DNA from: Mariniblastus sp.
GTDB taxonomy: Bacteria > Planctomycetota > Planctomycetia > Pirellulales > Pirellulaceae
Reading direction: 5' to 3'
Length of the DNA: 64,000 nt
Assembly (NCBI GenBank): GCA_011523945.1
Contig: WTFU01000140.1
Span: 27,613-91,612 of the forward strand
Shown here: positions 39,219 to 45,511 of the stretch, piece by piece
Layout of the letters: each line of letters starts with the position of its first letter
Numbering within the stretch: the stretch's first letter is position 1
Notes under the pieces: model-generated
Database searches by the model: none
Seen by the model: only the letters and a program-made list of their open reading frames with translations
What the model was told of the DNA's origin: nothing
Program-made: the position numbers and the translations under genes

Positions 39219-40283
39219 ATGAAACATCGTCTCGCCATTACAGGGCTGTCACTCGTGTTGGTTGGAGTGGTTCTTGGAGACAGTTCAGTCTTCGGGCAGC
39301 AGAAAAGGAATAGCAGCGGTGTTGAGGTTTGGGAATACCTGAAAGACAAATATGATGCAAATGGAGATGCCCAGCTGACCGAAGGTGAATATTCTCGGGG
39401 AGCCGAAAAATTTCAACGGCTTGATGTGAACCGTGATGGAGTGATTTCAGCTAAGGACTGGACTGGTGGTAATTCTCGCAAACCGTTTTCTCGAGAACGG
39501 CAGAAACGACCTTTGGGCTCACCTAATATCTCACCTCCGGTGAAAGGGGATGTGGCTCCCGGGTTTAACTTGGCGTACGTGAATGAGCCATCTAAAACTG
39601 TCGAACTTGCCAGCTTCAAAGGCAATAAGCCCGTGGCGTTGATTTTTGGAAGTTGTTCGTGACCGCCATTTGTTCGTTCAGCTGGTCAGCTGGAGAAGTT
39701 ATTTGAAGAGTATGGCACTGATGTTCAATTTTTTATGGTCTACTGCCGCGAAGCTCATGCCATTGATGGTGATCGGCCGATGTACAACGCCATTGTCGAA
39801 GAGCCGGTTTCTACCGAAGAGCGGAATCAGATAGCCAAGGACTTTGTAGAGGCATTAGATATTAAAATCCCGACGCTTCTCGACAAAATAGACGACAAAA
39901 CAGGAACCGATTATGCAGCGCACCCCGATCGATTGTATTTAATTGGGAAAGATGGCCGCGTGGCCTACGCAGGAGGTCGAGGCCCTGCGGGTTTCAAGCC
40001 GGATGAGTTGCGAGCGGCGATTAGGGTTGAGCTTGGAGAGGAGGCGACAGGTGATTCTGGCGACAGTCAAATGAGCCCCGCGTTAGTTCGTCGTTCAAGC
40101 CTGTCCATGCCAGTGATCATCGCTTTGGATCTTAATAAAGATGGAAAATTATCGGTTGATGAAATTGAACAGGCTCCGAAGTCATTGAAAATATTGGATA
40201 AGAATTCCGACGGAGATTTATCAAGAGAAGAGTTACGTCCATCTCAGCGAAGTAGAACAAGGCGTTCGCCACGGAGCAAGTAG
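39219..40283 (+). CDS. Secreted EF-hand iodothyronine-deiodinase-like selenoprotein (UGA = Sec148)
   Basis: 354 residues if TGA 39660-39662 is read as selenocysteine. The frame is open before and after it. ATG 39219 gives a signal peptide (MKHRLAITGLSLVLVGVVLG, then DSSVFGQQ); GTG 39150 has a better ribosome site and would add 23 residues. Two EF-hand loops follow (46-57, 69-80). The thioredoxin-fold domain (about 112-275) has LIFGSCSUPPF with Cys146/Sec148, VYCREAHAIDG (His180) and DRLYLIGKDG then AYAGGRGPAGFKPDELR: the same order as in animal deiodinases (GSCTUPPF, EEAHxSDG, GGRGPDG). Two more EF-hand loops lie at 304-315 and 327-338, then a basic tail. A bacterial-type SECIS hairpin follows the UGA. 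Deiodinases reductively remove halogen; the bacterial substrate is unknown, and peroxide or other redox chemistry is also possible. A plain nonsense mutation is the alternative, but is unlikely given conservation on both sides. Confidence 0.88.
39660..39694 (+). promoter_or_regulatory. Selenocysteine UGA and bacterial SECIS-like hairpin
   Basis: UGA at 39660-39662. A stem-loop at 39677-39694 has a 7-bp stem (UUCAGCU with AGCUGGA, one G-U pair) and apical loop GGUC (39684-39687). The loop starts 21 bases after the UGA; in E. coli fdhF the same GGUC loop, recognised by SelB, starts about 18 bases after. Being inside the reading frame just 3' of UGA is the bacterial arrangement. Confidence 0.8.
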
Positions 40284-40570: not shown

Positions 40571-40625
40571 TGACTGACTGACTGACTGACTGACTGACTG
40601 ACTGACTGACTGACTGACTGACTGA
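40571..40625. repeat. TGAC tetranucleotide microsatellite, 13 full units
   Basis: An uninterrupted run of 13 TGAC units plus a partial TGA. Because the unit is 4 bases long, every forward frame meets TGA stops, so no protein can be read through it on this strand. Such tracts change length by slippage. It lies about 290 bases after the selenoprotein stop and 300 before the next gene. Confidence 0.97.
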
Positions 40626-42535: not shown

Positions 42536-45511
42536 TTACTTTTGGGTTGTCGAGTTCTGACGAGCCCGATACTCCGCGATCATTTCACGCAAATCATTGC
42601 GAATGCCTAAGGCCAAACGGGTGATATTTTCATCATTATTTTTCTCTGCCGCTTCAACCAGAGTGCGAAGTTGCATGCCAAGCGATAGATCGGTTTGCTT
42701 GAGTGCGGACCCATCTGGATTTAGTTTTAAGATGGACTGAAAGGCGTCTTTCGAATTTTGAAATGCGTTCAACGCTGCGTTGAGGTTTCCGGCAGTGACA
42801 AAGTTGACTGCAAGTGTGTTTTGAACGGAAATGAACAGGTAGTGATAGTCGAGGACTTTGGGGAATTGGGTTTTGAGATCGTCAGCTATTTTAATGGACC
42901 TTTCCAACATTCGTTTTCGATTTTCGTCGGAATCTGAGGGATTGCTGAGCGAATAGGCCATGGCGAGTCGGTATCGGTAGTTGGATTGGTTGGGGGATTC
43001 AGCGATTAAGGACTCAAGTTCCTTAATGGCAAGGTTTCGCATTTTTAGTGCTGCTTTTTGGTCGGGTTCGACGAAACTCGAGGCGAGACAGCAATAGCAT
43101 TCAGCCCGAGCTGATCGATAATCGACATTGTCGGGTTCTTCGGCGATGAGCTGATCGAGGATCGTGATCGCGGTGTCTGCATTTTCTTTGCTTCGCCGCA
43201 ATAGTCTTACATTGGTCTCGTGAAGTCGGGATCTGCCCGAACCGCGAGGTGCAAAACCAGCTCCCCCTTTGGGTCGATTCGTATTGAGCTTCTTTGTTAA
43301 GTCTTGACCTTTCCTTAGGGGCGGGCGTCGAAACGGAGGTCTTCCAAGATATAATTCGATCCAGTTAGGCGGTCGATGCCCTTCGTCCCGATGGTGATTT
43401 CCAGGAGCTCCTTTTTGGACGGAACGACTTTCTTCAAGACTGTCATAGATGACGGCATTGATAGCAAGACTTGAGCCAATCGAGTTAAATGTTTTCGCCA
43501 ATTCCAATTTTAGTTGGTTGTCGAGTTGTTCAACCGGGACGTCTTTTAAAAGTTGGATTGCATTTTCATTTTGAGCGATTGCTTCGGCAAGCTTGTGGTC
43601 ACGGCGGTAAGCCCGGCTGAGTTCATTTTTTGTTTGCACCAATGCAATTAACGATTCTTTGGAGTCGGGAGAATCAACGAGAACTTTGTTGTACAGGTCG
43701 ATTGATTTTTTATAAGCATCAAAGGAGCGATCAACTTCTCCTAGTAATTGATAGATATTTGCAACGCGTCGGAAGGCACGAGCTGATTCGGCTTGCAGGT
43801 CTTGGTTATCAAAGTTGTTCGTGGCAAATTTGTCGTAAAAGGAAAGAAACTCTTCCAGGAAAACCGCATCCTGTTTCGTAATTGAAGTTTCGATTCCCTG
43901 TAGGTCCTCAAGTCCATCAATGCTAAGTTCACTTGAGTTTGTTGAGTCTTTGGCGACGAGCTGTTTAAACATCCGGTCAAACGCTTGAATAGAAATCTCA
44001 ACATTCCGTTCAGCGCGTTGATATTCACTTTCTTGCTTTTTGTAAGCTGCCTGAAATTTATTGTTAGCTTTCTCGGTTTCTATGATTTGCTCTTTTAACA
44101 GGGCAGATTTTTGCGCCTCTTTTTTCAACGCGTCGCTCGTGTAGAGATAGCCAAAGGAGGTGGCTGCAGCTACGAGCATGAGCAAGATACAAGAAATGAC
44201 GGAAAGTGATGCTGCCAGTGGGTTTCGGCGTCCCCACTTACTAACCATTTCAATCGTAGACGGCGGCCGCGCGGCGATGGTTCGGTCTTCCACAAACGCG
44301 ATGAGATCCCGTTGGAGATCTCTGACAGTCGCATAGCGTTCTTCCGGATTTCTCGAAATTGACTTTTCGATAATCGTGCTTAGGTCGATCGGAATGTCGG
44401 GGCTGATTTTGCGAGGTGATGGTGGAGAAGATGTCGCAATCGCTCGGATGACCTCCGCAGTGGAGCCATTGTTGAATGCAGGTTGAAGTGTGGCAAGCTC
44501 ATAGAGTGTTAGCCCGATGCAATAGACTTCACTGCGACAATCGTACCTTCCTTCGAGCGATTCAGGTGAAAGGTATTGCGGTGTCCCAATGACGTCACCA
44601 GTTTTCGTGAGATTAATGTCGCTGCTTGTATCTTTGGCCAGGCCAAAATCAGTAATCCAGACTTGGCCTTTTTGGTCAAGGATAATATTGGAGGGTTTGA
44701 TGTCCCGGTGAAGGAGTTCGGCTTCATGGGCGAAAGCGACTGCATCTGAGATATCTGCGGCAATTCTCGCTGCCCAGCGATAGTGATTGGCTTTCTTGAT
44801 TGGACGGGTTTGAGAATTGACAGTTGAGGGGGCGGTCGTCGTTTGACTGTTCGATGTGGCTGTTGAATTTTCTAAACGGGTCGAGGCATCGAGCGCGACG
44901 GTTAGCTCGCCGCTCATATCCAAACGGGTTTCATAGCGGTCTATTTTGGTGCTGACGGGATCGGATGAATTAATCCCATTGATAACGGCTCCCAGCGTCT
45001 GGCCATCGATTAAGTCCATCACGTAATAGTGATATCCTTCACCTTCACCAACCCCGAAAACACTTACGATATTGGTATGGTGTAATCTTGCGGCCGTCTG
45101 TGCTTCTCGTTTAAATCGTTGGACAAAATTTTTGCTGTTGATGAGTGGTGTGGGCATTACTTTAATCGCAACGCGTTTTCCCAGCGATTCATGTATTGCT
45201 TCGAAAACGACTCCCATGCCCCCTCGGCCAATCTCTCCCTTTATCTTATAAGGCCCAATCCGATCAAGGCCTGAAACCTCGTCGAGAGATCTGGATTTCG
45301 AGGGTGAGTTTGTTGGATCCGATTTCAGCTGTTCGATCATTGCGACGGATGCAAGCAGATCCTCAATTTCATCTTTGTATTCAGGGTGCTTCTCTTGGTA
45401 CTCAGCGATTGCAGGATGCTCACCGGCTCGAAGACGACTGGTGAAATGATCAACAATCTTTTCGAGAATTTCAGGGTCGCTTTGCGAATTGTCAGAAGAA
45501 TTAGCTGCCAT
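42536..45511 (-). CDS. Membrane serine/threonine protein kinase with TPR-like sensor region
   Basis: A 991-residue Hanks-type (PknB-like) kinase. Glycine loop GRGGMG at 95-100, Lys117 in VAIKVM, HRDIKPSN at 268-275 and DFG at 288-290 are intact, so it should be active. There is an unusual Ser/Thr-rich insertion of about 70 residues between 175 and 245, inside the catalytic domain. One transmembrane helix is at about 431-457. The C-terminal half is alpha-helical with TPR-like repeats, interrupted by a Pro/Arg/Gly-rich stretch (about 700-770). It overlaps the upstream ECF sigma stop by 11 bases. ECF-plus-kinase pairs are a known planctomycete signalling arrangement, where phosphorylation likely controls the sigma factor. 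Confidence 0.93.
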   Translation of the reverse strand: MAANSSDNSQSDPEILEKIVDHFTSRLRAGEHPAIAEYQEKHPEYKDEIEDLLASVAMIEQLKSDPTNSPSKSRSLDEVSGLDRIGPYKIKGEIGRGGMGVVFEAIHESLGKRVAIKVMPTPLINSKNFVQRFKREAQTAARLHHTNIVSVFGVGEGEGYHYYVMDLIDGQTLGAVINGINSSDPVSTKIDRYETRLDMSGELTVALDASTRLENSTATSNSQTTTAPSTVNSQTRPIKKANHYRWAARIAADISDAVAFAHEAELLHRDIKPSNIILDQKGQVWITDFGLAKDTSSDINLTKTGDVIGTPQYLSPESLEGRYDCRSEVYCIGLTLYELATLQPAFNNGSTAEVIRAIATSSPPSPRKISPDIPIDLSTIIEKSISRNPEERYATVRDLQRDLIAFVEDRTIAARPPSTIEMVSKWGRRNPLAASLSVISCILLMLVAAATSFGYLYTSDALKKEAQKSALLKEQIIETEKANNKFQAAYKKQESEYQRAERNVEISIQAFDRMFKQLVAKDSTNSSELSIDGLEDLQGIETSITKQDAVFLEEFLSFYDKFATNNFDNQDLQAESARAFRRVANIYQLLGEVDRSFDAYKKSIDLYNKVLVDSPDSKESLIALVQTKNELSRAYRRDHKLAEAIAQNENAIQLLKDVPVEQLDNQLKLELAKTFNSIGSSLAINAVIYDSLEESRSVQKGAPGNHHRDEGHRPPNWIELYLGRPPFRRPPLRKGQDLTKKLNTNRPKGGAGFAPRGSGRSRLHETNVRLLRRSKENADTAITILDQLIAEEPDNVDYRSARAECYCCLASSFVEPDQKAALKMRNLAIKELESLIAESPNQSNYRYRLAMAYSLSNPSDSDENRKRMLERSIKIADDLKTQFPKVLDYHYLFISVQNTLAVNFVTAGNLNAALNAFQNSKDAFQSILKLNPDGSALKQTDLSLGMQLRTLVEAAEKNNDENITRLALGIRNDLREMIAEYRARQNSTTQK

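What the first reader, a model, noticed from the sequence alone, without database searches (positions are those of the whole stretch)
39219..40283. In-frame UGA in a deiodinase-like gene: a probable bacterial selenoprotein
Seen: one frame runs from 39219 to 40283 with only TGA 39660-39662 inside. Just before it is FGSCS, just after is PPF, and further on EAHAIDG and GGRGPAG. Known: animal iodothyronine deiodinases have GSCTUPPF, EEAHxSDG and GGRGPDG in this order, with Sec at the same place. Inference: UGA is selenocysteine and the gene is normally mis-split into two ORFs. A bacterial deiodinase-like protein raises the question of which halogenated or peroxidic substrate it acts on.
Basis: partly seen in the sequence, partly recalled or inferred. 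Interest (0 to 1): 0.95.

Follow-up and report, generated by a model that had tools for sequence, protein, structure and literature searches.

The report
Bacterial selenocysteine relative of deiodinases
A planctomycete-like genome holds a gene whose internal UGA "stop" codon is likely read as selenocysteine, giving a relative of the animal thyroid-hormone deiodinases that is predicted to be exported and to work as a selenium redox enzyme; proteins of this kind were already known from ocean metagenomes, and what they act on is unknown.

Summary
In detail: frame 39219-40283 holds one stop, TGA 39660-39662, at the Sec position of a deiodinase domain (PF00837, 97 bits; best solved matches mouse Dio3 and Dio2). 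Sec decoding is very well supported. The genome holds tRNA-Sec, SelA, SelB and SelD; protein-level selection continues past the UGA; a 7-bp GGUC hairpin follows it. Across relatives a hairpin of at least 6 bp is present in 34 of 36 (family) and 50 of 59 (phylum) UGA genes but 2 of 23 Cys genes, far above synonymous recoding; all 23 family genomes with a UGA form found here have SelA. The product would be an EF-hand-flanked, thioredoxin-fold selenoprotein with a signal-like N-terminus. Relatives fused to AhpD-like (CxxC or CxxU) or thioredoxin modules make a thiol-recycled, peroxiredoxin-like reductase the likeliest role. Thyronine deiodination is not supported: the loop Trp, second His and distal Cys of animal deiodinases are missing. 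Bacterial deiodinase-like selenoproteins (2005) and their EF-hand fusion (2021) are in print, so this is a new member of a known kind. Not met in my searches: the spread through the phylum, the AhpD/thioredoxin fusions, and bacterial rows grouping with animal deiodinases.

The parts
39219..40283 (+). Whole gene: EF-hand / deiodinase-like / EF-hand selenoprotein, 354 residues, Sec at 148, stop TAG
   Evidence: translation with TGA=U; PF00837 97.1 bits, EF-hand models over cut-off
39219..39299 (+). N-terminal stretch of about 27 residues that looks like a signal peptide (by eye; no predictor was run)
   Evidence: sequence; low model confidence over residues 7-29 fits an unfolded leader
39354..39389 (+). 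EF-hand loop 1, residues 46-57
39423..39458 (+). EF-hand loop 2, residues 69-80
39546..40019 (+). Deiodinase-type thioredoxin-fold domain, residues 110-267
   Evidence: PF00837 stretch; fold matches to mouse Dio3 and Dio2
39660..39662 (+). In-frame TGA, predicted selenocysteine 148, inside GSCSUPPF (39648-39671)
   Evidence: same codon in relatives
39677..39694 (+). Predicted SECIS hairpin: 7 bp, loop GGUC (39684-39687), loop starts 21 nt after the UGA
39741..39770 (+). YCREAHAIDG: Tyr175, Glu178 and His180, invariant in 54 aligned rows
39972..39992 (+). GGRGPAG, with the Arg that matches Dio3 Arg275
40128..40163 (+). EF-hand loop 3, residues 304-315
40197..40232 (+). EF-hand loop 4, residues 327-338

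Best explanation
The UGA at 39660-39662 is very likely decoded as selenocysteine with the help of the hairpin that follows it, giving a deiodinase-fold protein that is predicted to be exported and to bind calcium, and that would use its selenolate to reduce an oxidised substrate (most likely a peroxide) and be reset by a thiol partner of the thioredoxin or AhpD type. Shown by sequence and comparison: the frame, the UGA, conservation past it, the covarying hairpin, the Sec machinery genes, the predicted deiodinase fold, the conserved Tyr/Glu/His and the EF-hand motifs. Inferred: actual Sec insertion, export, calcium binding, the direction of the redox reaction, the thiol partner (from fusions in relatives only) and the substrate class. 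My split: Sec decoding 0.97; thiol-recycled two-electron reductase 0.8; peroxide rather than another substrate 0.6.
For: Sec decoding: tRNA-Sec 67.4 bits and ARAGORN SeC(tca), SelB 369.7, SelA 588, SelD 259.3 bits, all over cut-off. pN/pS downstream of the UGA 0.155-0.190 against 0.191-0.244 upstream, versus L001, L003 and L029. Hairpin of at least 6 bp: 34 of 36 family and 50 of 59 phylum UGA genes, recoded maxima 7 and 15 in 500 draws; Cys genes 2 of 23, recoded maximum 3. Fixed registers: 32 of 36 UGA rows and 0 of 19 Cys rows. Covariation. All 23 family genomes with a UGA form have SelA over cut-off, against 86 of 149 overall. Two more UGA genes with hairpins in the same genome. Redox role: Foldseek ranks Dio3 and Dio2 first, then ResA, with AhpE also in the list; AhpE scores as high as Dio3 in the second look. 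Fusions of relatives to AhpD-like modules with CxxC (L072, L080, L092, L095, L106, L154) or CFYU (L085, L099, L103) and to a thioredoxin domain (L145, PF13899 44.1 bits).
Against: The window's own hairpin is not more stable than shuffles (z -0.27), and its stem length alone is not significant against synonymous recoding (p 0.073; 17 of 24 UGA rows reach p<0.05 by stem, 8 of 24 by energy). Rfam gives no match, and the hairpin also passes a terminator-like pattern scan. Two of five covariation measures do not exceed shuffles. The window protein carries no fused donor, the AhpD part of L099 has no match in this genome (no positive control), and no conserved neighbour gene names a partner or substrate. 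No expression, export or activity data exist here. The animal relatives are known for deiodination, not peroxide reduction.
Confidence: 0.6

Rival explanations
1. A bacterial dehalogenase: the selenoprotein reductively removes iodine or bromine from aromatic compounds, as animal deiodinases do from thyronines.
For: Closest solved structures and sequences are deiodinases; the deiodinase insertion aligns (171-180 residues against 144 for AhpE); Tyr175, Glu178, His180 and the Dio3-type Arg in GGRGP are present. One relative, L102, has the full set including DGW and QH.
Against: In the window protein the loop Trp is Asp, the second His is Pro and the distal Cys is Ile. PMC1088965 (passages) argues for a redox role other than thyroid hormone. 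Fused donors in relatives fit general thiol recycling.
Confidence: 0.2
2. A thiol-disulfide reductase of the cell envelope (ResA/DsbE-like) rather than a small-molecule reductase.
For: ResA structures follow the deiodinases in the fold search; the N-terminus looks like an export signal (by eye).
Against: There is no CxxC; the motif is CxUPPF, and the proximal Cys146 is in only 6 of 35 Sec rows. AhpE scores as high as ResA.
Confidence: 0.12
3. The gene is broken by a nonsense mutation or assembly error, or the hairpin acts as a terminator, so only a 147-residue EF-hand protein is made.
For: A mechanical ORF list splits it; the hairpin passes a terminator-like scan.
Against: The same UGA in 36 family and 60 phylum rows, selection past it, hairpins tied to UGA and not to Cys forms, and the Sec machinery.
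Confidence: 0.02
4. UGA is read as tryptophan under another code.
For: Nine metagenome proteins in A4 show Trp at this place.
Against: tRNA-Sec and SelA/B/D are present; natural alternatives at the site in genome DNA are Cys codons. Trp is what a gene caller prints if it uses table 4 (inference; DNA of those nine was not seen).
Confidence: 0.01

Closest known systems
Prokaryotic deiodinase-like selenoprotein, PF00837 (PMC1088965, 2005; PMC2398784, 2008)
   Same: Sec in a deiodinase domain, bacterial SECIS, Cys forms exist (passages)
   Different: Those were metagenome fragments without an organism; here there is a genome with its Sec machinery and relatives across the phylum
Deiodinase-like protein fused to an EF-hand domain (PMC9402790, 2021)
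   Same: EF-hand plus deiodinase-like selenoprotein (passage and figure legend read)
   Different: The window protein has two EF-hand loops on each side; the published architecture beyond Pfam13499 was not seen
NCBIfam NF038285, deiodinase family protein
   Same: Same region matches (193.7 bits)
   Different: Under the curated cut-off of 250; relative L099 is over it (399.6)
Animal iodothyronine deiodinases Dio2, Dio3 (PDB 9h48, 4tr3)
   Same: Fold, Sec motif, Tyr/Glu/His, GGRGP
   Different: No loop Trp, second His or distal Cys; EF-hands and a signal-like leader; activity unknown
Peroxiredoxins (AhpE) and AhpC-AhpD pairs
   Different: Lacks the peroxiredoxin PxxxT/SxxC Pro (Leu141 at that place) and carries the deiodinase insertion

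Membership tests
Bacterial selenoprotein gene | In-frame UGA with coding sequence on both sides | tested here: met
Bacterial selenoprotein gene | tRNA-Sec, SelA, SelB, SelD in the genome | tested here: met
Bacterial selenoprotein gene | bSECIS: loop 3-9 nt with G in the first two places, stem 4-16 bp, loop 16-37 nt after UGA (rules as in PMC13188914) | tested here: met
   7 bp, loop GGUC, 21 nt
Bacterial selenoprotein gene | bSECIS free energy of -7.5 kcal/mol or lower | tested here: inconclusive
   -6.7 for the 18-nt hairpin alone, -9.1 for a 35-nt stretch
Bacterial selenoprotein gene | Selenium found in the protein | not testable with these tools
   needs labelling or mass spectrometry
Prokaryotic deiodinase-like protein (PF00837) | PF00837 over its gathering score | tested here: met
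   97.1 bits against 27
NCBIfam NF038285 deiodinase_rel | Score over the curated cut-off | tested here: not met
   193.7 against 250
Iodothyronine deiodinase (animal type) | Thioredoxin fold with the deiodinase insertion | tested here: met
   model aligns 171 and 180 residues to Dio2 and Dio3; a predicted model
Iodothyronine deiodinase (animal type) | Tyr, Glu and first His of the proton relay (PMC11592359) | tested here: met
   Y175, E178, H180
Iodothyronine deiodinase (animal type) | Loop Trp and second His (Dio2 Trp167, His182) | tested here: not met
   Asp and Pro in the window protein
Iodothyronine deiodinase (animal type) | Distal Cys (Dio2 Cys205) | tested here: not met
   Ile217 by the alignment; Cys only at 146 and 176
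Iodothyronine deiodinase (animal type) | Removal of iodine from thyronines | not testable with these tools
   needs an assay
Peroxiredoxin | PxxxT/SxxC (or U) motif (recalled) | tested here: not met
   Ser145 at -3 fits, Leu141 at -7 is not Pro (sequence)
Peroxiredoxin | AhpC/TSA family score | tested here: met
   PF00578 27.6 bits, just over its cut-off of 26

The most novel reading that the evidence does not exclude
Animal thyroid-hormone deiodinases are a late, membrane-bound branch of an exported planctomycete-type selenoenzyme family that began as a calcium-tethered, peroxiredoxin-like reductase recycled by AhpD or thioredoxin modules; the residues that mark the animal enzymes (loop Trp, second His) already occur together in a bacterial member, L102.
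Probability: 0.22. Interest if true: 0.75.

Novelty: new member of a known kind. Interest (0 to 1): 0.42.

Why it matters
Bacterial deiodinase-like selenoproteins have been known by sequence since 2005 with no tested function that I found and mostly no organism. This one sits in a planctomycete-like genome with its Sec machinery, and relatives occur across the phylum, so a laboratory planctomycete could be assayed. The natural fusions name candidate electron donors, which makes the question of what deiodinases did before thyroid hormone testable. It is also a clear case of a gene class that automatic annotation cuts in two.

Tried and rejected
Rfam on the window at gathering score, and on 39500-39900 at E up to 1: nothing. 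Stability of the window's own hairpin against shuffles: not significant, so I moved to comparison across relatives. Conserved neighbourhood (58 loci, ORFs of 90 aa or more): the sigma-factor-like, methyltransferase-like and 228-aa neighbours (first two labels recalled from sequence) recur only in L001, L003, L058 and L059. Search of this genome with the AhpD part of L099: no match, no positive control. Plasmid collection: no match. NF038285: under cut-off. Broken gene, Trp decoding and terminator were considered and rejected as told under rivals. The structural second look lists no EF-hand chain; that says nothing about the EF-hand parts, which were barely tested.

Rows dropped. In one search, 4 of 59 loci (L098, L105, L111, L112) gave no motif hit; L067 was left out of alignment A3 for an X. 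A1 took 24 of 26 register-B rows (L076 and L094, 5 of 7 pairs each, left out) and A2 took 8 of 10 register-A rows (L068 and L079, 5 and 4 of 7 pairs, left out), so lean towards the structure; keep all rows. The two registers were read from the family rows. In one search, 2 of 69 loci (L151, L166) gave no motif hit and repeated places were counted once; one search uses 59 of the 60 after removing a repeat of a family row. One search lists matches at E 1e-15 or better; DNA was read for the 69 loci L118-L186, not for every listed place. The scan used loops of 3-6 nt that start 16-26 nt after the UGA.

Not in print, as far as searches show (open-access library only, listings and passages): a deiodinase-AhpD or deiodinase-thioredoxin fusion, or a planctomycete deiodinase-like protein. 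Searches served the SECIS rules and the Dio2 structure paper. Supplements (such as S9 Table of PMC4807772) could not be read.

Full report

Who owns it. The nearest named relatives are planctomycete assemblies: L001 (Planctomycetaceae, 85%), L002 and L003 (Mariniblastus sp., 85% and 80%). The window's genome G000 has 5.4 Mb in 208 contigs and is about 92% complete; its own name is not given.

Is the UGA selenocysteine? The genome holds tRNA-Sec (67.4 bits; ARAGORN anticodon tca), SelB (369.7), SelA (588) and SelD (259.3), all over their cut-offs. Two further UGA genes lie in it, each followed by a perfect hairpin: a redoxin with FGCLTUPPF (7 bp) and an AhpD-like gene with CFYU (8 bp). Against L001, L003 and L029, pN/pS is 0.155-0.190 downstream of the UGA and 0.191-0.244 upstream, so the downstream half is under protein-level selection.

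The hairpin. For the window alone it is not remarkable (z -0.27; stem length p 0.073), so the test is comparative. In the family set, scored in two fixed registers (loop 17 or 21 nt after the UGA), at least 6 of 7 pairs form in 32 of 36 TGA rows and 0 of 19 Cys rows; sliding the register gives at most 7 of 36. On selected rows (24 of 26 and 8 of 10) 97.6% and 100% of cells pair, with changes on both sides in 5 of 7 and 3 of 7 pairs; cells paired, cells changed on both sides and the covariation score exceed all 500 shuffles in both, while the count of such pairs (151 of 500 shuffles as high) and of pair types (55 of 500) do not stand out. In a second set from across the phylum the fixed registers fit 32 of 60 TGA rows and 0 of 4 others, with sliding controls of 0-14 of 60. 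A general scan against 500 synonymous recodings gives 34 of 36 (recoded maximum 7), 50 of 59 (maximum 15), and for Cys genes 2 of 23 (maximum 3). Hairpins thus go with UGA and not with the amino-acid sequence.

Distribution. Of 149 family genomes, the best deiodinase-type matches of 41 were fetched as 55 stretches. 23 genomes hold a UGA form and all 23 have SelA over cut-off; 16 showed only Cys forms, 7 of them with SelA; 2 (G079, G047) stayed unclassified; overall 86 of 149 have SelA. These genomes are related, so the p-values are not independent-sample tests. Of 294 genomes across the phylum, 83 match at E 1e-15 or better, most listed places with one TGA. The Cys label needs 3 changes on a 66-row tree and 4 on a 122-row tree, so Sec and Cys have been exchanged several times. 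Residue 145 is Ser in 35 of 35 Sec rows but Asn in 15 of 19 Cys rows.

How it may work. Invariant in all 54 aligned rows are F143, G144, U/C148, Y175, E178, H180, R202, D222, P236, G255 and P256. PMC11592359 (passages read) assigns the matching Tyr, Glu and His of Dio2/Dio3 to a proton relay beside Sec. The same paper names a second His and a Trp of the deiodinase loop and a distal Cys; the window protein has Pro, Asp and Ile there. Relatives are fused to likely electron donors. AhpD-like modules with CxxC occur in L072 (there on the N-terminal side), L080, L092, L095, L106 and L154; in L085, L099 and L103 the module has a second in-frame UGA giving CFYU, followed by a 6-bp GGUC hairpin. The module's name rests on motif and modest scores: Pfam CMD is over cut-off in L080 and under it in L154, and NCBIfam AhpD-type models match L099 under their cut-offs. 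L145 carries a thioredoxin domain (PF13899, 44.1 bits) with CPPC. I therefore favour a thiol-recycled, peroxiredoxin-like reductase; export and calcium binding are likely settings. The substrate is not shown.

Relation to animals. The two mouse rows group with L102 (81/81 support), and with L102, L159, L160 and L165 on the larger quick tree (SH-aLRT 89). L102 alone among the 54 rows has U, EAH, DGW, QH and GGRGP together. Sampling is Planctomycetota, eight metagenome proteins (only) and two mouse sequences, with midpoint rooting, so this is a lead only.

What was known. Sec and Cys deiodinase-like proteins with bacterial SECIS were reported in 2005 (PMC1088965: 4 Sec, 6 Cys), again in 2008 (PMC2398784: 22 Sec, 21 Cys), and in reviews (PMC9312934, PMC13188914; passages). 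The EF-hand fusion was reported in 2021 (PMC9402790). Selenoproteins in planctomycetes were reported in 2016, with no deiodinase in the main text (PMC4807772). The window gene is a new member of a known kind; the spread through Planctomycetota, the AhpD and thioredoxin fusions and the animal-grouping rows were not met in the searches listed under Tried and rejected.

Noticed in passing
L085, L099, L103; proteins P0044, P0058, P0079: Deiodinase-like proteins fused to an AhpD-like module whose CxxC is CFY-UGA, a second Sec site with a 6-bp GGUC hairpin. P0044, P0058 and P0079 begin after the deiodinase Sec place and end at CFY or CAY, so they may be pieces of double selenoproteins (DNA not seen).
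   Followed up: partly
L007 (G000:C166:33714-34118) and L066: A second UGA family in the same genome: a redoxin with FGCLTUPPF in a 564-residue frame with EF-hand-like motifs, UGA followed by a perfect 7-bp hairpin; two tandem copies beside the deiodinase-like gene of L066.
   Followed up: partly
L187 (G000:C7:107001-107561): A short AhpD-like gene with CFY-UGA-TLFH and an 8-bp hairpin, a third UGA gene of this genome.
   Followed up: partly
L145:223-2325, minus strand: UGA-form deiodinase-like protein with a C-terminal thioredoxin domain (CPPC).
   Followed up: partly
P0019, P0020, P0022, P0023, P0024, P0028, P0030, P0032, P0033: Metagenome proteins with Trp at the Sec place (FGSYTWPP), probably UGA printed as Trp by gene callers using table 4; DNA not checked.
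   Followed up: no
Alignment A3, residue 145: Ser in 35 of 35 Sec rows, Asn in 15 of 19 Cys rows: the residue three before the catalytic one changes together with Sec/Cys.
   Followed up: no
window 40571-40625: Perfect TGAC repeat, 13.8 copies, about 290 bases downstream of the gene.
   Followed up: no
window 42536-45511, minus strand: Kinase-like ORF (label recalled from its sequence) with an odd Arg/Pro/Gly-rich stretch in the middle that looks like an inserted segment.
   Followed up: no
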